A stretch of DNA of 64,000 nucleotides, from positions 1-64,000 of the forward strand of contig JAIETP010000006.1 in NCBI GenBank assembly GCA_019744975.1. Reading direction: 5' to 3'. The notes under the pieces are model-generated. The model ran no database searches, was not told the DNA's origin, and worked only from the letters and a program-made list of their open reading frames with translations. This DNA comes from Burkholderiales bacterium (lineage in GTDB: Bacteria > Pseudomonadota > Gammaproteobacteria > Burkholderiales > SG8-41). The stretch's first letter is position 1. Every line of letters starts with the position of its first letter. Shown here piece by piece: positions 2,991 through 57,203 of the stretch. The translations under genes and the position numbers were made by a program.

Positions 2991-3929
2991 TCAACGTCCG
3001 GCAAGGTTGCGGAAACGCTGGTAACGCGCACGCGGCGTGCGCACGGCCAGCCACGCCGGCGCCACCGCTTCCAGCGCCTGCGGCTTGATGCCAAAGGGAA
3101 ACGCACTGTCGCTGACGCTGTCGATTTCCATGGAACGCAGGTTGTCGCGGGTCATCAGCTTCACCGGCAGCCATTCCATCGCGCAGGCCTGACCATAGGA
3201 CAAGGCGCGGTTGAGTCCGATGATCGGCCGTGGATGGCCGGTGATGCGGCCGACGTACGCGACCAGTTCGCGCAGCGTGTAGCGTTGCGGACCGCACAAC
3301 GCATAACTCTGGCCAAAGGTCTTCATGTCGGTCAGCGCACGCACGAATGCAGCGGCGACATCATCGACATAGACCGGCTGAAAACGCGCGCCCGGGCTCG
3401 CCAGCGCGATGACCGGCAGCACCCGCGCCAGACAGGCAAACATGTTGAGAAAACTGTCATCGGGTCCGAAAATCACCGACGGCCGGAAGATCGTGAAATC
3501 AAGGCCGGATTCGCGCACGATCATTTCAGCTGCGCCCTTGCTGCGCAGATAGGCGCTGGGCGCGTCCGGTGCCGCAGCCAGTGCGCTCATCTGCAGCAGG
3601 CGACGGACGTTATTGGCGCGGCAGGCGGCGACAACCTTGCGCGCCAGTTCGACATGCGCCGCCTCAAAACCGCGTTTTCCACGTGCGTCGTGCAATACAC
3701 CGACCAGATTGATTACCGCATCACATCCCTTGACCACCGCCGCCAGCGCCACGGGATCCTGCACATCCGCCACCACCACATCGACCGTGGGCAGCAGGAT
3801 CAGCGTTTTGGCGCGTTCGCGGTCGCGCGTCGGCACGCGCAGGCGATAACCCTGCGCAGCGAGCTGCTGACAGAGATGGCGGCCGACAAAACCCGTACCG
3901 CCGATGACACAGATATTGGTGATTTGCAT
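2991..3929 (-). CDS. NDUFA9-like NAD(P)-binding reductase (atypical SDR)
   Basis: 312 residues beginning with a Rossmann dinucleotide-binding motif, GGTGFVG at residues 10-16. The protein resembles the complex I NDUFA9/39-kDa subfamily of atypical short-chain dehydrogenases, often annotated as NAD-dependent epimerase or complex I NDUFA9 family protein in betaproteobacteria. The usual order slt - this gene - cca is seen here on one strand. The classical SDR YxxxK pair is replaced by a Y-L-R-S-K arrangement (SAYLRSKGAAE), which keeps Tyr and Lys. No substrate can be proposed. A complex I role is unlikely to be its only function, since no nuo genes are near. Confidence 0.78.
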   Translation of the reverse strand: MQITNICVIGGTGFVGRHLCQQLAAQGYRLRVPTRDRERAKTLILLPTVDVVVADVQDPVALAAVVKGCDAVINLVGVLHDARGKRGFEAAHVELARKVVAACRANNVRRLLQMSALAAAPDAPSAYLRSKGAAEMIVRESGLDFTIFRPSVIFGPDDSFLNMFACLARVLPVIALASPGARFQPVYVDDVAAAFVRALTDMKTFGQSYALCGPQRYTLRELVAYVGRITGHPRPIIGLNRALSYGQACAMEWLPVKLMTRDNLRSMEIDSVSDSAFPFGIKPQALEAVAPAWLAVRTPRARYQRFRNLAGR

Positions 3930-3945
3930 CAGCCCATTCTACCCT

Positions 3946-3966
3946 TCACCCATCGCCCATTACCCA
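3946..3966 (+). repeat. Short tandem heptamer-like repeat, TCACCCA/TCGCCCA/TTACCCA
   Basis: Three degenerate 7-bp units lie between the slt stop and the reductase start. The unit resembles the TCACTCA heptamer inside rmlB at 51957-51991 and the octamers of the palindromic repeat family. Function unknown. Confidence 0.4.
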
Positions 3967-3974
3967 TCTCCGAG

Positions 3975-39107: not shown

Positions 39108-39144
39108 TGGATTCTACTGTAGTGATTGTGATATTTAGTAATTG

Positions 39145-39211
39145 GGTGATTAAGTAATTAAGTAATTGCGGTGAAGATGCCCGGGTTTAATCACCTAATT
39201 ACTTAATCACC
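39145..39211. repeat. Octamer-based palindromic repeat, copy 1
   Basis: Arms at 39145-39167 and 39189-39211 pair at about 20 of 23 positions. Each arm is built of units like GTGATTAA or TAATTAAG. It occupies most of the uppP-MacB gap. Related copies lie at 48891-48986, 54211-54247, 55290-55373 and 55740-55772. Confidence 0.65.
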
Positions 39212-43400: not shown

Positions 43401-45456
<2,056 letters not shown>

Positions 45457-45564
45457 GTGATGTTTACGCTAATGGAAATATGGGATAATTGCAAGCAAGC
45501 AGCGGCGTTTTTCAAACAACGCTCAAGACTCGAAATCCCCTTTTTCAACAAGCAGTTATCGGCC

Positions 45565-48882: not shown

Positions 48883-48890
48883 TGGTTCTG

Positions 48891-48986
48891 GTGATTAGGT
48901 GATTAGGTGATTAGGTGATTAGGTGTTGGGCCATGAAAGAATGTCGGAGAAAGTTCAATCACTTAATCACCTAGTCACTTAATCAC
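48891..48986. repeat. Octamer-based palindromic repeat, copy 2
   Basis: Four tandem GTGATTAG units at 48891-48922 and a complementary arm AATCACTTAATCACCTAGTC... at 48957-48986. The right arm overlaps the waaC end and encodes its last residues SVIK and stop. Sits between waaC and waaA, both minus strand. Confidence 0.65.
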
Positions 48987-51134: not shown

Positions 51135-52196
51135 GTGATTCTGGTAACCGGCGGTGCAGGTTTCATCGGCGCCAACTTCGTCCTCGACTGGCTGGCCAGT
51201 GAAAGCTCGCCCGTCGTCAATCTCGACAAACTGACCTACGCCGGCAATCCGGCGAACCTCGCATCGCTCAAGGGAGACAGCCGTTATGTTTTTGCGCAGG
51301 GGGACATCTGCGATCGCAAACTGGTCGCCGGTCTGCTGCAAAAACACCAGCCGCAGGCGATTGTGCATTTCGCCGCGGAAAGCCATGTTGACCGCTCGAT
51401 CCTCGGTCCGGGCGAATTCGTGCAGACCAATGTCGTCGGCACCTTCAGTCTGCTGGAAGAGGCGCGCGCCTACTGGGGAACACTGGCCGAACCGGCAAAA
51501 ACACGTTTTCGCTTTCTGCATGTGTCGACCGACGAAGTTTATGGTTCATTGAGCAGCACTGATCCTGCGTTCAGCGAAACCACGCCCTACGCGCCGAACA
51601 GCCCCTATGCCGCATCCAAAGCGGCGTCCGACCACCTGGTGCGCGCCTACCACCACACCTACGGCCTGCCGGTGATCACCACCAACTGCTCGAACAACTA
51701 CGGCCCGCTGCAGTTCCCGGAAAAACTGATCCCGCTGATGATCCTCAACGCGCTGAACGGCAAACCGCTGCCGGTGTACGGCGACGGCAAAAACGTCCGC
51801 GACTGGCTCTACGTCGGCGACCACTGCGCCGGCATCCGCGCAGCACTCGCCAAAGGCCGGCCCGGCGAGACCTACAACATCGGCGGCAACAGCGAAAAAA
51901 CCAACCTCGAAGTGGTGCATGCGGTGTGCACGATCCTCGACGAGTTATGCCCGAATTCACTCATCACTCATCACTCATCACTCATCACTTACGTGAAGGA
52001 CCGACCGGGCCACGACCGGCGCTATGCCATTAACGCAACGAAAATCCATCAGGAACTCGGATGGGAGCCGCAGGAGCGTTTCGAGGCCGGGCTGCGCAAG
52101 ACCGTGGAGTGGTACCTGGCCAACCAGACGTGGATTGCAGCGATACAGAACGGCGATTACCGAAAGTGGATGGACTCAAACTACATCAATCGGTGA
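51135..52196 (+). CDS. rfbB: dTDP-glucose 4,6-dehydratase
   Basis: 353 residues, GTG start after an AAAGAGAGG site. Extended SDR with [10 protein letters not shown], catalytic pattern [11 protein letters not shown] and YxxxK in [13 protein letters not shown]. It converts dTDP-glucose to dTDP-4-keto-6-deoxyglucose, the second step of dTDP-rhamnose synthesis. Between LCPN and [10 protein letters not shown] the usual short loop is replaced by [10 protein letters not shown], encoded by five tandem 7-bp units (51957-51991). The frame is open at present. rmlD, rmlA and rmlC lie 2-5 kb downstream, separated by accessory genes. Confidence 0.92.
51957..51991 (+). repeat. Five heptamer tandem repeats (TCACTCA) inside rmlB
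   Basis: Units at 51957, 51964, 51971, 51978 and 51985; the last is TCACTTA. Seven is not a multiple of three, so gain or loss of one unit shifts the rmlB frame. Confidence 0.85.
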
Positions 52197-52392
52197 TTGT
52201 TGAATACAGTGGCGCCCCAAACAAGCACGTAGGGTGGGCAAAGCGCAGCGTGCCCACGCGGACATGCCAAGTGTTACATGGTGGGCACGCTGCGCTTTGC
52301 CCACCCTACTTAAACCACTAAAAAGTGCCGCAATGGTCGCCCTATTTATCGACTACTGAGTAATCGGTGATTGTTGAATACAATGGTGCCCC
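52188..52392. repeat. 31-bp direct repeats flanking a REP-like hairpin
   Basis: AATCGGTGATTGTTGAATAC... occurs at 52188-52218 and 52362-52392 with two mismatches. The left copy contains the rmlB stop. The 143 bp between them hold a long hairpin. The layout suggests an insertion or a recombination that duplicated the end of rmlB. Confidence 0.6.
52229..52309. repeat. REP-like hairpin with 29-bp perfect arms
   Basis: Arms at 52229-52257 and 52281-52309 begin GTAGGGTGGGCAAAGCGCAG and are exact complements over 29 bp, with a 23-bp loop. The GTAGGGTGGGC... unit is a widespread intergenic palindrome in proteobacteria as far as I recall. Function unknown; a transcription-terminating or mobile origin is possible. 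Confidence 0.7.
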
Positions 52393-52445: not shown

Positions 52446-52679
52446 ATGCAAGTTTCCAAATGGGGTAACAGTCTGGCGGTGCGCCTGCCCGCTTCGGTCA
52501 TCGAGGCCCTTGGTCTCAAGGAGGGCGATGACATCGAAATCCAGATCGCCGGACGCGGTGCGTTCGAGATCGCCAAGAAACCGGGCGCGCGCGCGGTGCT
52601 GGCGCGTTTGAGGAAATACCGGGGGCGTCTGCCCGCGGACTTCCGCTTCGACCGGCTGGAAGCTCAAACGCGTGGCTGA
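52446..52679 (+). CDS. AbrB/MazE-type antitoxin
   Basis: 77 residues with the swapped-hairpin AbrB fold at the N-terminus (MQVSKWGNSLAVRLPASVIE, then LGLKEGDDIEI) and a basic tail. It pairs with the PIN-domain gene that overlaps its end by 8 bp. This is the VapB-type antitoxin of a type II toxin-antitoxin module. Confidence 0.88.
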   Translation: MQVSKWGNSLAVRLPASVIEALGLKEGDDIEIQIAGRGAFEIAKKPGARAVLARLRKYRGRLPADFRFDRLEAQTRG

Positions 52680-53073
52680 GCGGTTTTTTGACACCACGGT
52701 ATTGCTGTACCTGCTTTCCGCCGATGCAACCAAGGCCGATCGGGTGGAAGAAACCCTTGCCGCAGGCGCTACCATCAGCGTTCAGGTCCTCAACGAATTT
52801 GCTGCGGTTGCGCTGCGCAAACTCGGCATGACCGTGGCCGAGGTGCGCGAAGTGCTTGCCCCGATCATGACCATCTGCAAGGTTCTACCGATCACTGTCG
52901 AAACCCATAAACGGGGTTTGCAGATCGCCGAGCGTTACCGGTTCGCGGTCTATGATGCGCTCATCATTGCCGCCGCGCTCGACGCGGGTTGCTCAACGCT
53001 CTACACCGAAGACCTGCAGGACGGCCAGGTCATTGACGATGTGCTGACTATCAGAAACCCGTTCCAAATCTAG
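52672..53073 (+). CDS. PIN-domain ribonuclease toxin (VapC-like)
   Basis: 133 residues, GTG start. PIN acidic residues are visible in RFFDTTVLLYLL (D7), VQVLNEFAAVA and VYDALIIAAALDAGCSTLYTED (read as DALIIAA then YTEDLQDG). It should cleave RNA and be blocked by the overlapping AbrB-type antitoxin. It lies in a low-GC accessory stretch within the rhamnose locus. Confidence 0.9.
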   Translation: MAERFFDTTVLLYLLSADATKADRVEETLAAGATISVQVLNEFAAVALRKLGMTVAEVREVLAPIMTICKVLPITVETHKRGLQIAERYRFAVYDALIIAAALDAGCSTLYTEDLQDGQVIDDVLTIRNPFQI

Positions 53074-53241: not shown

Positions 53242-54222
53242 ATGAGACTATCTGACGAACAATTACGCGCCTTAAATAACGCCGGGCAACTTCACGACGC
53301 CTGGAAAGAGGTCGTGTCCAGATTGGCCCAAATGCCCGGCGGCATGTATTGGCGCGTCATCAACAGCCGCGAGTATCTCTACGAATACGTTTCGACCACC
53401 GGCAAGCAACAGACAAAATACGTGGGCGCCAAAACCCCGGAGATCGAAAACATTTTCAGGGAATTCAAAGAAACCCGAGCAGACCTTGATGCCCGAAGGG
53501 CGGGCATAGAAGCTCGCCTCGTGGAAATGGCGCCGATGTGGCGCGCCCTTCGACTTCCGGCAGTCGATACTACCGCTGGCCGCATCCTGCGCGCTTTCGA
53601 TATCGGCGATTTCCTCGGCTTGAACCTTCTCGTCGTCGGAACTTATGCCCTGAAGGCTTACGAGGTCGAAGCGGCCGCCGCGTTCTCAACCGGCATGGAC
53701 GCCACGGACGATCTGGACTTCACATTGCTCATCGATCAGGCAAAACCTGATGCGGATCTTCCAAGGAGACTATTGCTGACGCTGAAGCAGGAAGACTCCA
53801 GCTTCATTGTTTCCACTGCGTCCGCCAAGACCTTGGTGAATAAAAATGGCTACAAGATTGATTTGCTCACCAGCACGGAATATGCAAAAGCACTGGCTTC
53901 GGCGATACCATGGAAGCCACAGGGGCTGGAAGGGCAGGAGTGGCTGGTGCTGGGCAAACCGGTACAAACCGTGCTGATCGACTTTCAAGGACGCCCCGTC
54001 GCCATTGCTGCACCTGACCCGCGGTACTTCGCCTTGCATAAATTATGGCTGAGTAAACGACCGGGCCGCCCCCGGGCCAAGGCCGTCAAGGACGAAAATC
54101 AGGGGCGGGCATTATTGCAAGCCGTCAGAAAATATATGCCCCACTATCCGCTGGACGAAAAATATGTTGCAAAACTCCCACAGGAATTAAAAGCGCAGAT
54201 TCGCGATTCAGTGATTGGGTGA
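53242..54222 (+). CDS. GSU2403-type nucleotidyltransferase-fold protein
   Basis: 326 residues. A polymerase-beta-like nucleotidyltransferase core is suggested by VVGTYALKAYE (G133 region) followed by the metal-binding D-x-D in ATDDLDFTLLI (D157, D159), matching the NTP_transf_8 domain family. Its N-terminal segment (YWRVINSREYLYEYV ... KYVGAK) is also family-like. The biological role is not known. It has an AT-rich promoter and its last residues SVIG plus the stop come from an octamer repeat. It stands alone among accessory genes and may be horizontally acquired. Confidence 0.65.
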   Translation: MRLSDEQLRALNNAGQLHDAWKEVVSRLAQMPGGMYWRVINSREYLYEYVSTTGKQQTKYVGAKTPEIENIFREFKETRADLDARRAGIEARLVEMAPMWRALRLPAVDTTAGRILRAFDIGDFLGLNLLVVGTYALKAYEVEAAAAFSTGMDATDDLDFTLLIDQAKPDADLPRRLLLTLKQEDSSFIVSTASAKTLVNKNGYKIDLLTSTEYAKALASAIPWKPQGLEGQEWLVLGKPVQTVLIDFQGRPVAIAAPDPRYFALHKLWLSKRPGRPRAKAVKDENQGRALLQAVRKYMPHYPLDEKYVAKLPQELKAQIRDSVIG

Positions 54223-54355: not shown

Positions 54356-55240
54356 TTGACCACCATTCTCCTACTAGGCAAAACCGGGCAAGTCGGTTTT
54401 GAACTGGAACAAGCGCTCGGCCCGGTCTGCCGCCTGATCGCGCCCGGCCACGCCGAGGCTGACCTGACTGATGCAGATGCAATCCGCGCGCTGATTAAAA
54501 ACGCGAAGCCGGATGTCATCGTCAATGCCGCCGGTTTCACCATCGTCGATGCCGCCGAATCCCAGACTGAACTCGCCATGCAGCTCAATGCCACGGCGCC
54601 CGGGATCATTGCGGAATGTGCTGAACAATGCGCTGCAGTGCTGATTCATTATTCGACTACTTTTGTGTTTGACGGTACCAAGCGTGAGCCTTACACCGAA
54701 GCCGACACGCCCAATCCGGTCAACGCCTACGGTCGCAGCAAACTGGCGGGCGAACGCGCGGTCGTGGCCGCATGCCGGCGCCACCTGATCCTGCGCGCCA
54801 ACTGGGTTTACAGCGCGCGGCGCACAAACTTTGCGCTGGCGATGCTGAAACTGGCACGTGAAAAAGCCGAACTTGAAATCGTCAATGACCAGATCGGATC
54901 ACCGACCTGGGCGCGGGACTATGCCGCCGCCACGGTACAGCTGATCGCGGACCACGGCAGGTTGCGGGATAGTTCAGGCATATACCACCTGTCGGCGCAG
55001 TCACATTGCTCGCGCATGCAATGGGCGCAAAAACTGATTGACTGTGCCCGAGCAATGCCCGGCGCCGGAAAAAGCTGGGCCGCGCTGCGCCCGACCACCA
55101 CCGCGCAATATCCCCATCCCGCGCCGCGGCCCTTGTACACCGTCACCAGCAACCAGAAAATTGAAGCGACCTTTGGCATTCGCATGCCCGTGTGGGAAGA
55201 TCGCATCGAAGCTTTTGTGCGCTCGCTACCGTGGCAATAA
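54356..55240 (+). CDS. rfbD: dTDP-4-dehydrorhamnose reductase, divergent copy 1
   Basis: 294 residues starting at a TTG with no clear ribosome binding site. Rossmann motif LLGKTGQVGFELEQ and catalytic YGRSKLAGE are present. Compared with the second copy at 57203, STDYVFDG has become STTFVFDG and AAAYTAVDLAEQEP has become AAGFTIVDAAESQT, while the NWVY, VNDQIGSPTWA and C-terminal segments are conserved. It may be a functional reductase with altered substrate or a drifting duplicate. Confidence 0.8.
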   Translation: MTTILLLGKTGQVGFELEQALGPVCRLIAPGHAEADLTDADAIRALIKNAKPDVIVNAAGFTIVDAAESQTELAMQLNATAPGIIAECAEQCAAVLIHYSTTFVFDGTKREPYTEADTPNPVNAYGRSKLAGERAVVAACRRHLILRANWVYSARRTNFALAMLKLAREKAELEIVNDQIGSPTWARDYAAATVQLIADHGRLRDSSGIYHLSAQSHCSRMQWAQKLIDCARAMPGAGKSWAALRPTTTAQYPHPAPRPLYTVTSNQKIEATFGIRMPVWEDRIEAFVRSLPWQ

Positions 55241-55289
55241 ACCTCGGAACCAATCGTTTTAATTATCTATCTAGGGCGTGATCAAGAGC

Positions 55290-55373
55290 GTGATTAAGTG
55301 ATTAGGTAACTAAGTGATTGAAGGGATGGATGCCAATCGGTTTAATCACCTAATCACTTAATCACCGAATCAC
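55290..55373. repeat. Octamer-based palindromic repeat, copy 4
   Basis: Left arm GTGATTAAGTGATTAGGTAA... (55290-55318) and right arm AATCACCTAATCACTTAATC... (55343-55373) with a 24-bp centre. Lies just upstream of the four-helix-bundle gene. Confidence 0.65.
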
Positions 55374-55388
55374 CAGGGGAGGTGGTTT

Positions 55389-55739
55389 ATGACCCGGCCG
55401 CATTACAATCTCGAAGCTTGGAAATCAGCAATGGTGCTGGTCAGCGGCATTTACCAAATCACTCGGAGCTTCCCCAAGGAAGAGTTGTATGGTCTGACCT
55501 CCCAGATGCGGCGTGCAGCCGTATCCATCCCCAGCAATCTCGCGGAAGGTGCTGCACGCACAGGGCAAAAAGAATTTGCGCAATTCCTCAGTATCGCGAA
55601 AGGATCACTGAGTGAACTGGAAACACAGCTTCTCATTTCAGCCGACCTGGGATATTTGGACCGAAAACATGAGATATTTCAGCAGGCAGACAAGGTATCC
55701 AGCCTGCTGTCCGGACTTCACCGCAGCCTAAGCAAGTGA
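55389..55739 (+). CDS. Four-helix-bundle protein (23S rRNA IVP family)
   Basis: 116 residues of the S23/intervening-sequence protein family. The sequence starts PHYNLEAWKSAMVLVSGIYQ (split as PHYNLEAWK then AMVLVSGIY) and carries the SIPSNLAEGAARTGQKEFAQFL and IAKGSLSELETQLL blocks. Such proteins were first found in 23S rRNA intervening sequences and occur as orphans near polysaccharide genes. The gene is flanked by copies of the octamer repeat (55290-55373 and 55740-55772). Confidence 0.85.
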   Translation: MTRPHYNLEAWKSAMVLVSGIYQITRSFPKEELYGLTSQMRRAAVSIPSNLAEGAARTGQKEFAQFLSIAKGSLSELETQLLISADLGYLDRKHEIFQQADKVSSLLSGLHRSLSK

Positions 55740-55772
55740 CCCAATCACCTAATAACCTAATCACTTAGTCAC
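55740..55772 (+). repeat. Octamer repeat arm, copy 5
   Basis: CCCAATCACCTAATAACCTA then ATCACTTAGTCAC, the same orientation as the right arms of the other copies. With copy 4 it brackets the four-helix-bundle gene. Confidence 0.5.
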
Positions 55773-55779
55773 AAAAATC

Positions 55780-56658
55780 ATGAGAAAAGGCATCATCCTC
55801 GCCGGCGGCTCCGGCACCCGGCTTTATCCGGTGACCCATGTCGTGTCGAAGCAGCTACTGCCCATCTACGACAAACCGATGGTGTATTACCCCTTATCGA
55901 CGCTGATGCTGGCCGGCATCCGCGACATTCTGCTGATCTCCACGCCGCAGGACACGCCGCGGTTCAAGGAACTGCTCGGCAACGGCAAGCAATGGGGCAT
56001 CAACATTTCCTACAAAGTGCAGCCTTCACCGGACGGCCTGGCGCAGGCCTTCACGCTGGGCGCGAAATTCATCGGCAAGGATCCGGTGACTCTCGTCCTC
56101 GGCGACAACATCTTTTTCGGCCATGACTTCGCGACGCAGTTGATGACCGCGGCAGCGCAAACCACGGGCGCCACGGTATTCGCCTATGCGGTGCAGGATC
56201 CGGAGCGCTATGGCGTCGTCGAATTTGATGCCAGGGGCCGGGCGCTGAATCTGGTGGAAAAACCCAAAAAACCGAAGTCACGTTATGCCGTGACCGGACT
56301 CTATTTTTACGACAACTCGGTGGTGAAACTCGCGAGGTCGCTGAAACCGTCGGCGCGCGGCGAACTCGAAATCACCGACCTCAACATGCTCTACCTGCAG
56401 CAGAAAAAACTCGAAGTCTGCGTACTCGGCCGCGGCATGGCCTGGCTGGACACCGGCACCCACGACTCGCTGCTCGAAGCCTCGCAGTTCATCGAAACCG
56501 TGGAAAAGCGCCAGGGCCTGAAAGTGGCTTGCCCGGAGGAAATCGCCTATCGCAAAGGTTTCATCACCGCCGGTGATCTGAAAAAACTCGCGGCCCCCCT
56601 GCAGAAAACCGCTTATGGCCAGTATCTGCTGCGGCTGCTGACCGACCAGGTGTTCTGA
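55780..56658 (+). CDS. rfbA: Glucose-1-phosphate thymidylyltransferase
   Basis: 292 residues; makes dTDP-glucose from dTTP and glucose 1-phosphate, the first step of dTDP-rhamnose synthesis. N-terminal [16 protein letters not shown], the [16 protein letters not shown] block, and the metal-binding [10 protein letters not shown] motif are intact. Feedback inhibition by dTDP-rhamnose is expected. The stop overlaps rmlC by one base. Confidence 0.96.
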
Positions 56659-57203
56659 TGAATATCGTCAAAACAGAACTGCCGGATGTGCTGATCATCG
56701 AACCGAAAGTGTTCGGCGATGCGCGCGGATTTTTTTTCGAGAGCTTCAACGCGAAAACGTTTGCTGCATTAACGGGGCTCAACCCGACATTCGTGCAGGA
56801 CAACCATTCACGTTCAGCAAAGAATGTACTTCGCGGGCTGCATTACCAGATCAAACAGCCGCAAGGAAAACTGGTGCGTGTTTCTGCGGGTGAGGTATTC
56901 GATGTGGCAGTCGATGTTCGCAAAAGCTCCCCCACCTTCGGCCGATGGACCGGCACCACCTTGTCCGCTGAAAACAAGCGAATGATGTGGGTTCCCGAAG
57001 GCTTTGCCCATGGCTTTCTGGTACTCAGCGAATCGGCAGATTTTTTATATAAAACGACGGACTACTACGTCCCGGAGCATGAACGCTGCGTCATCTGGAA
57101 TGACCCCATAGTCGGTATCGCATGGCCGCTTGCGGAACAACCCATCCTCGCCGCCAAAGACAAAACCGGCAAGTTACTGGTTGAAGCAGAAACATTCGAC
57201 TGA
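56658..57203 (+). CDS. rfbC: dTDP-4-dehydrorhamnose 3,5-epimerase
   Basis: 181-residue cupin. FFFESFNAKTF, the catalytic His in LRGLHYQIKQPQGKLVRV, and the Tyr-containing segment DFLYKTTDYYVPEHERCVIW are present. Third enzyme of dTDP-rhamnose synthesis. Overlaps rmlA and rmlD2 by one base at each end, so the three are translated as a unit. Confidence 0.95.
   Translation: MNIVKTELPDVLIIEPKVFGDARGFFFESFNAKTFAALTGLNPTFVQDNHSRSAKNVLRGLHYQIKQPQGKLVRVSAGEVFDVAVDVRKSSPTFGRWTGTTLSAENKRMMWVPEGFAHGFLVLSESADFLYKTTDYYVPEHERCVIWNDPIVGIAWPLAEQPILAAKDKTGKLLVEAETFD

What the first reader, a model, noticed from the sequence alone, without database searches (positions are those of the whole stretch)
51957..51991. 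Heptamer microsatellite in rmlB: candidate phase-variable locus
Five tandem 7-bp units lie in the coding region of the dTDP-glucose dehydratase. A one-unit change shifts the frame and would switch off dTDP-rhamnose synthesis. The repeated stretch replaces a loop in the family alignment, so the protein can carry it. Slipped-strand switching of surface sugars is an established strategy in other genera.
Basis: partly seen in the sequence, partly recalled or inferred. Interest (0 to 1): 0.62.

Follow-up and report, generated by a model that had tools for sequence, protein, structure and literature searches.

The report
Seven-base repeat array inside rmlB
A sugar-synthesis gene carries a near-perfect run of seven-base repeats inside one protein loop; the same loop carries such runs in other bacteria, in frame in every case read, so it looks less like an on/off switch than a coding offshoot of a widespread, poorly understood class of short repeat arrays.

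Summary
The repeat is real: four perfect TCACTCA units plus a fifth with one mismatch, in the rmlB codons for residues 275-285. It is a DNA-level repeat, not a codon accident (0 of 2000 synonymous resamplings reach it). Phase variation is not supported: five species with the same loop peptide have the same unit number, 17 of 17 array-bearing genes read are in frame across the array, and 38 of 102 array-free genes have a loop of the same length. No within-species data were available, so switching is not excluded.

Heptamer arrays occur in this one loop in 17 of 119 rmlB genes and nowhere else in those genes, with several different units. A TCAC heptamer read through three frames meets the residue pattern that most array-free loops keep.

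The background is the more novel part. Inverted 7/8-bp arrays flank genes for the S23-like "23S rRNA-intervening" four-helix-bundle protein: 16 of 21 loci in the family, controls 0 of 22 and 0 of 21, and 16 of 26 in a phylum sample. One array pair is present or absent between two genes, with its spacer inverted in one species. A published heptamer repeat before the Coxiella S23 ORF fits this. That rmlB's array comes from that system is inferred.

The parts
51135..52196 (+). rmlB, dTDP-glucose 4,6-dehydratase (353 aa, GTG start)
   Evidence: TIGR01181 500.8 bits, cut-off 365.1; solved relative 1g1a E 1.3e-141
51957..51989 (+). heptamer array (TCACTCA)4.7, coding residues S275-T285; a fifth unit with one mismatch runs to 51991
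   Evidence: TRF, sequence, codon resampling
51948..51992 (+). loop codons C272-Y286; recurrent heptamer site in rmlB
   Evidence: alignment and periodicity survey; AlphaFold model: coil 272-279, helix 280-283, strand 284-287, block pLDDT 81-82
54356..55240 (+). rmlD
   Evidence: TIGR01214 above cut-off
55780..56658 (+). rmlA
   Evidence: TIGR01207 above cut-off
56658..57203 (+). rmlC
   Evidence: TIGR01221 above cut-off
55389..55739 (+). four-helix-bundle gene, 23S rRNA-intervening (S23-like) family, between rmlD and rmlA
   Evidence: PF05635 127.6 bits, cut-off 33.8; TIGR02436 122.8 bits, cut-off 24
55276..55374 (.). paired inverted octamer arrays just before the four-helix-bundle gene
   Evidence: TRF, fold z -5.3
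55740..55772 (.). octamer array just after the four-helix-bundle gene
   Evidence: TRF 55739-55761, sequence
48890..48986 (.). paired inverted octamer arrays with spacer, between the genes called here waaC and waaA (names recalled)
   Evidence: TRF, fold z -6.8, presence/absence and spacer inversion in relatives
39120..39210 (.). paired inverted octamer arrays with spacer
   Evidence: TRF, fold z -4.3

Best explanation
The repeat is a coding member of the genomes' large population of 7/8-bp tandem arrays with a TCAC core, held in a loop of RmlB where such an array can be translated with little harm. A heptamer NTCACNN read through three frames gives [FLIV]-T-x-H-x-S-[LPHQR] over and over, which contains H-x-S-L-[FLIV]-T; nearly all array-free RmlB loops here keep the looser pattern [HY]-x-x-[LQM]-[ILVM] just before the strand, so an array can fit at this place in this register. 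Arrays have been gained, lost or exchanged at this loop several times and with different units. Repeat turnover (slippage or conversion) keeps the DNA repetitive, while selection on frame and loop length fixes the unit number. It is therefore a tolerated, frame-locked repeat rather than a switch. Shown: the array, its non-random DNA, the single recurrent site, frame and length constancy, loop codon identity beyond the rest of the gene, and the higher array load of these genomes. Inferred: why this loop, turnover as the homogenising force, and origin from or with the genome's other arrays.
For: Site: 7-period score of 20 or more of 28 in the loop in 17 of 119 rmlB genes, elsewhere in the same genes 0 of 119 (17 of 136 rows dropped before the count). 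Units differ: TCACTCA, TCATCCC, ATTCACG with GTCACTC, ACCCATA, TCACCCA, TCACTCC, and ACACTAA plus TCACTCA in Rheinheimera. DNA level: 0-1 of 2000 resamplings reach the observed score in 16 of the 17 (14 of 2000 in L205); of 101 array-free genes tested (of 102; 300 draws each) 2 have p<0.05. Register: [HY]xx[LQM][ILVM] in 92 of 102 array-free loops and 15 of 17 arrayed ones. Repeated change: 12 label changes on a loop-free tree of 125 rows, at least 8 forced by well-supported branches. Homogenisation: the five genes with peptide [10 protein letters not shown] share 10 of 10 loop codons in all ten pairs, against 50-58% synonymous identity elsewhere (82% in one close pair). Background: rmlB-array genomes of the family have a median of 105.5 TCAC/CACT pattern hits against 28 in the others (14 vs 37 genomes, Mann-Whitney p 0.0015).
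Against: The full motif TxHxSL[ILVM]T that a TCAC array encodes is in 11 of 17 arrayed loops but only 3 of 102 array-free ones, so the array brings most of its peptide with it rather than matching a natural sequence. In the window's own genome 2.7 copies of the unit recur at only one other place, and most arrays there are octamers, so a local donor is not shown. No filled/empty pair differs by a simple 7n insertion: arrayed and array-free loops within the genus differ by two residues and look swapped. The tree cannot separate gain, loss and transfer of short gene segments. The five-gene comparison was chosen by shared peptide, which favours shared codons. Array counts across related genomes are not independent.
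Confidence: 0.65

Rival explanations
1. Phase-variable contingency locus: slippage by one unit truncates RmlB and switches dTDP-rhamnose off.
For: The unit is not a multiple of three, and +1 or -1 unit gives 301 or 284 aa; one strong rmlB match in the genome; repeat DNA is more conserved than synonymous sites, so it may turn over.
Against: Unit number constant in five species with the same peptide; 17 of 17 array-bearing genes in frame across the array; same-length loops without repeats in 38 of 102 array-free genes. The array is in the last quarter of the gene.
Confidence: 0.12
2. The arrayed loop spreads as an allele: short stretches of rmlB are exchanged between species, and the array came with them.
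For: Within genus g1 the loop PNSLITH..SLIT sits in genes otherwise closest to PAGAPHAKLIT genes, and both loop types occur in more than one genus.
Against: Other families and Rheinheimera have different units at the same loop, which needs separate events. Not tested by recombination breakpoints.
Confidence: 0.2
3. The array entered rmlB as an arm of the inverted-array elements that flank four-helix-bundle genes or stand alone between genes.
For: Same period and TCAC core; such elements come and go between genes; an array is translated in the linker between two ABC domains in another genome, reading LLTPHSSLLT; the four-helix-bundle gene lies in the rml cluster here, and its profile match begins within 150 bp 3' of rmlB in 9 of 52 rmlB-bearing family genomes.
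Against: rmlB shows one direct array with no inverted partner and no stable fold (z -0.34). Of those nine genomes only G022 has the rmlB array.
Confidence: 0.25
4. Codon or protein-level coincidence: the peptide [11 protein letters not shown] alone makes the DNA look repetitive.
For: The peptide itself has a seven-residue period, and synonymous resampling gives a mean score of about 14 of 28.
Against: 0 of 2000 resamplings reach 27 of 28.
Confidence: 0.02

Closest known systems
TAACTGA intergenic heptamer repeats of Beggiatoaceae, Cyanobacteria, Bacteroidetes (PMC4679880; abstract and passages seen)
   Same: Many 7-bp direct arrays per genome, mostly between genes, a few inside ORFs; spread by an unknown route
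   Different: One unit sequence there; here many units per genome, 7 or 8 bp, often inverted pairs. 'four helix' and 'S23' do not occur in that text.
GGGAATC / GGGGA(C/T)T heptamers of Xanthomonas and Nostoc (PMC4692102; passages seen)
   Same: Genome-wide heptamer arrays, mostly intergenic; it cites GTGATTA in Helicobacter and says no detailed literature on heptameric repeats was available
   Different: G-quadruplex units; no four-helix-bundle link in the passages seen
Intervening sequence of Coxiella 23S rRNA with S23 ORF (PMC4990558; passages seen)
   Same: S23-family ORF, terminal inverted repeats forming a stem, and two or three GACAGAT heptamers before the ORF whose number differs between strains
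   Different: Sits in 23S rRNA; the elements here lie between protein genes
Simple-sequence contingency loci, e.g. the heptanucleotide tract of Haemophilus hmw1A (PMC8262952, search listing only; details recalled)
   Same: 7-bp tandem repeat tied to a surface structure
   Different: hmw repeats are in the promoter and vary between isolates (recalled); here coding and constant between the species compared
Avd, accessory protein of diversity-generating retroelements
   Same: Weak profile match of the window's four-helix-bundle protein (NF033474, E 7.1e-05, below its cut-off)
   Different: No retroelement was looked for beside it

Membership tests
Phase-variable SSR contingency locus | tandem repeat whose unit change alters frame or promoter | tested here: met
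Phase-variable SSR contingency locus | unit number varies between close relatives or cells | tested here: inconclusive
   constant across five species; no within-species data
Phase-variable SSR contingency locus | off-phase alleles exist | tested here: not met
   0 of 17 array-bearing rmlB genes shifted at the array, one genome per species
Genome-wide heptamer SSR arrays | 7-bp units in many copies per genome | tested here: met
   47 of 74 family genomes match CACTNNN x4; up to 592 overlapping CACT+TCAC hits in one genome. In the window's own genome only 7 such hits; most of its arrays are octamers.
Genome-wide heptamer SSR arrays | intergenic location | tested here: not met
   the rmlB array is coding; the octamer arrays of the window that I read are intergenic
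dTDP-glucose 4,6-dehydratase RmlB | TIGR01181 above cut-off | tested here: met
   500.8 against 365.1 bits
23S rRNA intervening sequence (for the neighbouring gene 55389-55739) | S23/IVP protein family | tested here: met
   PF05635 127.6 bits, cut-off 33.8
23S rRNA intervening sequence (for the neighbouring gene 55389-55739) | located inside 23S rRNA | tested here: not met
   lies between rmlD and rmlA
23S rRNA intervening sequence (for the neighbouring gene 55389-55739) | excised from RNA by RNase III | not testable with these tools
   needs RNA work

The most novel reading that the evidence does not exclude
The 7/8-bp arrays are the arms of a family of mobile, invertible elements tied to S23-like four-helix-bundle proteins: units differ from copy to copy, arms are inverted, copies insert at gene junctions, expand, contract and flip their spacer. 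The rmlB array is a translated, domesticated offshoot of that system, kept because a TCAC heptamer read through three frames yields a peptide that the RmlB loop tolerates.
Probability: 0.3. Interest if true: 0.82.

Novelty: new variant of a known kind. Interest (0 to 1): 0.55.

Why it matters
Heptamer arrays have been reported repeatedly in bacterial genomes without an agreed explanation. Two testable handles come out of this: a protein-coding site where such arrays recur in frame, which gives a readable record of their turnover, and a protein family (S23/four-helix bundle) that sits between inverted arrays of varying sequence in many genomes of a phylum, a candidate for the factor that binds or moves them. 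It also warns against calling a coding heptamer in a surface-sugar gene a phase switch without population data.

Tried and rejected
Phase variation was weighed first and lowered by constant unit number, intact frames and same-length array-free loops. Codon coincidence was rejected by resampling. A structured RNA in rmlB was rejected (fold z -0.34), and Rfam at its gathering scores finds only a TPP riboswitch in the window. Of 30 array places in other genomes (one per genome) 10 lay well inside a long ORF; one was rmlB itself, one a fused ABC transporter confirmed by Pfam, and the other eight looked by eye like wrong-frame readings but were not searched. A first regular-expression extraction of rmlB lost 15 genes and was replaced by BLAST-anchored extraction. 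My first wording, that the natural RmlB loop already has the motif TxHxSLIT, was dropped after a count: 3 of 102 array-free loops. Literature searches for four-helix-bundle proteins with arrays turned up only the Coxiella case; a search for rmlB phase variation held 64 papers, and none of the ten listed contains either gene name.

Full report
OBSERVATION. The array is at the stated place: four perfect TCACTCA units and a fifth with one mismatch, 51957-51991, perfect to 51989. It is in frame in rmlB (TIGR01181) and encodes S275-T285 of 353 residues, between a helix and the strand leading to the conserved VKDRPGHD. The AlphaFold model, built on 16 sequences (mean pLDDT 80.1), has a coil at 272-279, a short helix 280-283 and a strand 284-287, with block pLDDT 81-82. 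The Salmonella enzyme 1g1a has a loop two residues shorter there.

NOT A CODON ACCIDENT. I scored identity at distance 7 over 28 positions. The loop scores 27. With synonymous codons redrawn from the gene's own usage the mean is 13.8 and 0 of 2000 reach 27. I read 136 rmlB rows from three searches and one pattern scan (with stretches) and dropped 15 that a pattern had picked, one duplicate and one cut by a contig end. In the other 119 the loop scores 20 or more in 17, and no other place in those genes scores above 17. The sample is ranked by similarity to the window protein: of the places listed I read 60 new ones (L171-L230) besides those already held, and left the lower-scoring ones unread.

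SAME LOOP, DIFFERENT UNITS. TCACTCA occurs in several genera of the family (L001, L011, L066, L071, L096, L018), point-mutated in L002, L006 and L013; TCATCCC in L073; ATTCACG with GTCACTC in L023; ACCCATA in L020; TCACCCA in L205 and TCACTCC mixed with other units in L172, both other families of the order; ACACTAA with TCACTCA in Rheinheimera. L192, of a third family outside the window's, also passes. On a tree without the loop columns (quick method), built from the 119 plus six pattern-picked rows, the label changes at least 12 times, 8 forced by well-supported branches. Gains, losses and exchange of gene segments cannot be told apart.

WHY THIS LOOP. A heptamer N-TCAC-NN repeated three times fills 21 bases and is read as [FLIV]-T-x-H-x-S-[LPHQR]; this follows from the genetic code. 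It contains the pattern [HY]-x-x-[LQM]-[ILVM], which 92 of 102 array-free and 15 of 17 arrayed loops have just before the strand. So an array can be translated here in this register. The complete array motif TxHxSL[ILVM]T is rarer: 11 of 17 arrayed and 3 of 102 array-free loops. The consensus TxHxSLIT comes from 16 sequences, six of them arrayed, and must not be read as the natural motif. The fit is thus compatibility, not identity.

PHASE VARIATION. One unit more or fewer truncates the protein; three units more or fewer keep it. Yet 14 of 17 array-bearing genes have the same 19-residue stretch (from LDEL to the residue before VKD), the other three 28, 31 and 33 residues; 38 of 102 array-free genes have 19 residues too. 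All 17 are in frame across the array; the single internal stop (G071, TAG) is in frame and well downstream. In the five genes with peptide [10 protein letters not shown] all ten loop codons are identical in every pair, while synonymous identity elsewhere is 50-58%, or 82% for one close pair. So the DNA repeat is renewed faster than the gene diverges, or was acquired recently; either leaves room for slippage, but none was seen. Each genome stands for one species, and no isolates or reads of one species were available.

GENOME BACKGROUND. In the own genome a GTGAT-cored 7/8-bp pattern has 11 forward and 22 reverse overlapping hits against 0 and 0 for the reversed control; most are octamers, and the hits include the rmlB array and a few other heptamers. 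The octamer pairs that I read in the window are intergenic with a spacer, at 39120-39210, 48890-48986 and 55276-55374, and fold far better than shuffles (z -4.3, -6.8, -5.3). Relatives have heptamer arrays with many units; CACTNNN x4 matches 47 of 74 family genomes. The reversed 'control' of that pattern gave more hits in total because TCAC-cored arrays fit it, so it is not a null there. rmlB-array genomes of the family have more such hits (median 105.5 against 28; 14 against 37 genomes, p 0.0015; one of 52 genomes, with a partial rmlB, left out).

FOUR-HELIX-BUNDLE LINK. The gene 55389-55739 between rmlD and rmlA is an S23-like '23S rRNA-intervening' protein (PF05635), with arrays on both sides. 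I scanned periods 5 to 12 within 300 bp of such genes in loci of the best-scoring matches, about one per genome. Family: 16 of 21 loci (30 fetched of 42 genomes with the gene; 9 too short). Phylum sample: 16 of 26 (29 new loci fetched of 58 genomes with the gene; 3 too short). Controls from the same family: PIN genes 0 of 22 (30 fetched, 8 too short) and rmlC genes 0 of 21 (30 fetched, 9 too short). The near arrays around four-helix-bundle genes had period 7 in 38 and period 8 in 5, no other period. Inverted arms across the gene score above the PIN maximum in 16 of 21 and 18 of 26, against 0 of 22 and 0 of 21. Against mismatched pairs of the same group the excess is weaker: 5 of 21 and 6 of 26 above the 95th percentile, PIN 1 of 22; loci that share units blunt this test. 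Gene counts and array hits correlate over 74 genomes (Spearman 0.60); kinship is not corrected, and 2 of 13 genomes without such hits still have the gene while 10 of 40 with 20 or more hits lack it. In 9 of 52 rmlB-bearing genomes the profile match of such a gene begins within 150 bp 3' of rmlB on the same strand, and of these nine only G022 has the rmlB array.

PRESENCE, ABSENCE, INVERSION. Between the genes that I call waaC and waaA (names recalled, no family search run), 4 of 15 readable genus members have an array pair (G000, G020, G005 octamers; G018 heptamers) and 11 have none, seven of them with only 12-33 bp between the aligned ends; two more loci were unreadable, and the other four of the 21 genomes gave no locus there. 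The spacer is homologous in G000, G020 and G005 but inverted in G005 (G000-G005: local score 19 inverted, 0 of 2000 shuffles reach it; 8 in the same sense). So such a pair comes and goes and can flip; which state is older, and what moves it, is not shown.

PRINT. Heptamer arrays are known (PMC4679880 abstract and passages; PMC4692102 and PMC4853749 passages). The Coxiella S23 ORF is preceded by two or three heptamers that differ between strains (PMC4990558, passages seen). My searches found no general link between S23-like genes and heptamer arrays; most subscription papers are not in that library.

VERDICT. A real, DNA-level coding repeat at a recurrent site; most likely tolerated and frame-locked; its kinship to the genome's array system is plausible but inferred. 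My confidence went from 0.68 to 0.65 when the motif count weakened the 'why this loop' step.

Noticed in passing
window 48883-48986; L300-L316: Paired inverted arrays between waaC and waaA (names recalled), present in 4 of 15 readable genus members; the spacer is inverted in G005; in G000 the array supplies the last codons and the stop of the upstream gene.
   Followed up: yes
window 55276-55772; L141-L170, L271-L299: S23-like four-helix-bundle genes flanked by inverted 7/8-bp arrays in the family and in a phylum sample.
   Followed up: yes
rmlB loci of G012, G014, G005, G019, G032, G026, G022, G021, G082: Four-helix-bundle gene directly 3' of rmlB in 9 of 52 rmlB-bearing family genomes.
   Followed up: partly
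L134: Fused ABC transporter ATPase whose inter-domain linker is a translated heptamer array (LLTPHSSLLT), perhaps a former gene junction.
   Followed up: partly
window 52226-52311: Long palindrome (GTAGGGTGGGCAAAGCGCAGCGTGCCCAC...) just 3' of rmlB, with a near-identical direct repeat of about 30 bp on both sides (about 52189 and 52364).
   Followed up: no
window 52446-53073: MazE-like antitoxin and PIN-domain gene, followed by a predicted nucleotidyltransferase (53242-54222), between rmlB and rmlD.
   Followed up: partly
window 45336-45462: TPP riboswitch on the minus strand.
   Followed up: no
window 3927-3968: Degenerate CATCACC array, 5.6 copies, 70% matches.
   Followed up: no
L083: A MAG record titled Bordetella parapertussis has the same rmlB loop DNA as G025 of this family; the title may be wrong.
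   Followed up: no
L097: In-frame TAG near the 3' end of rmlB in G071; nonsense change or assembly error.
   Followed up: no
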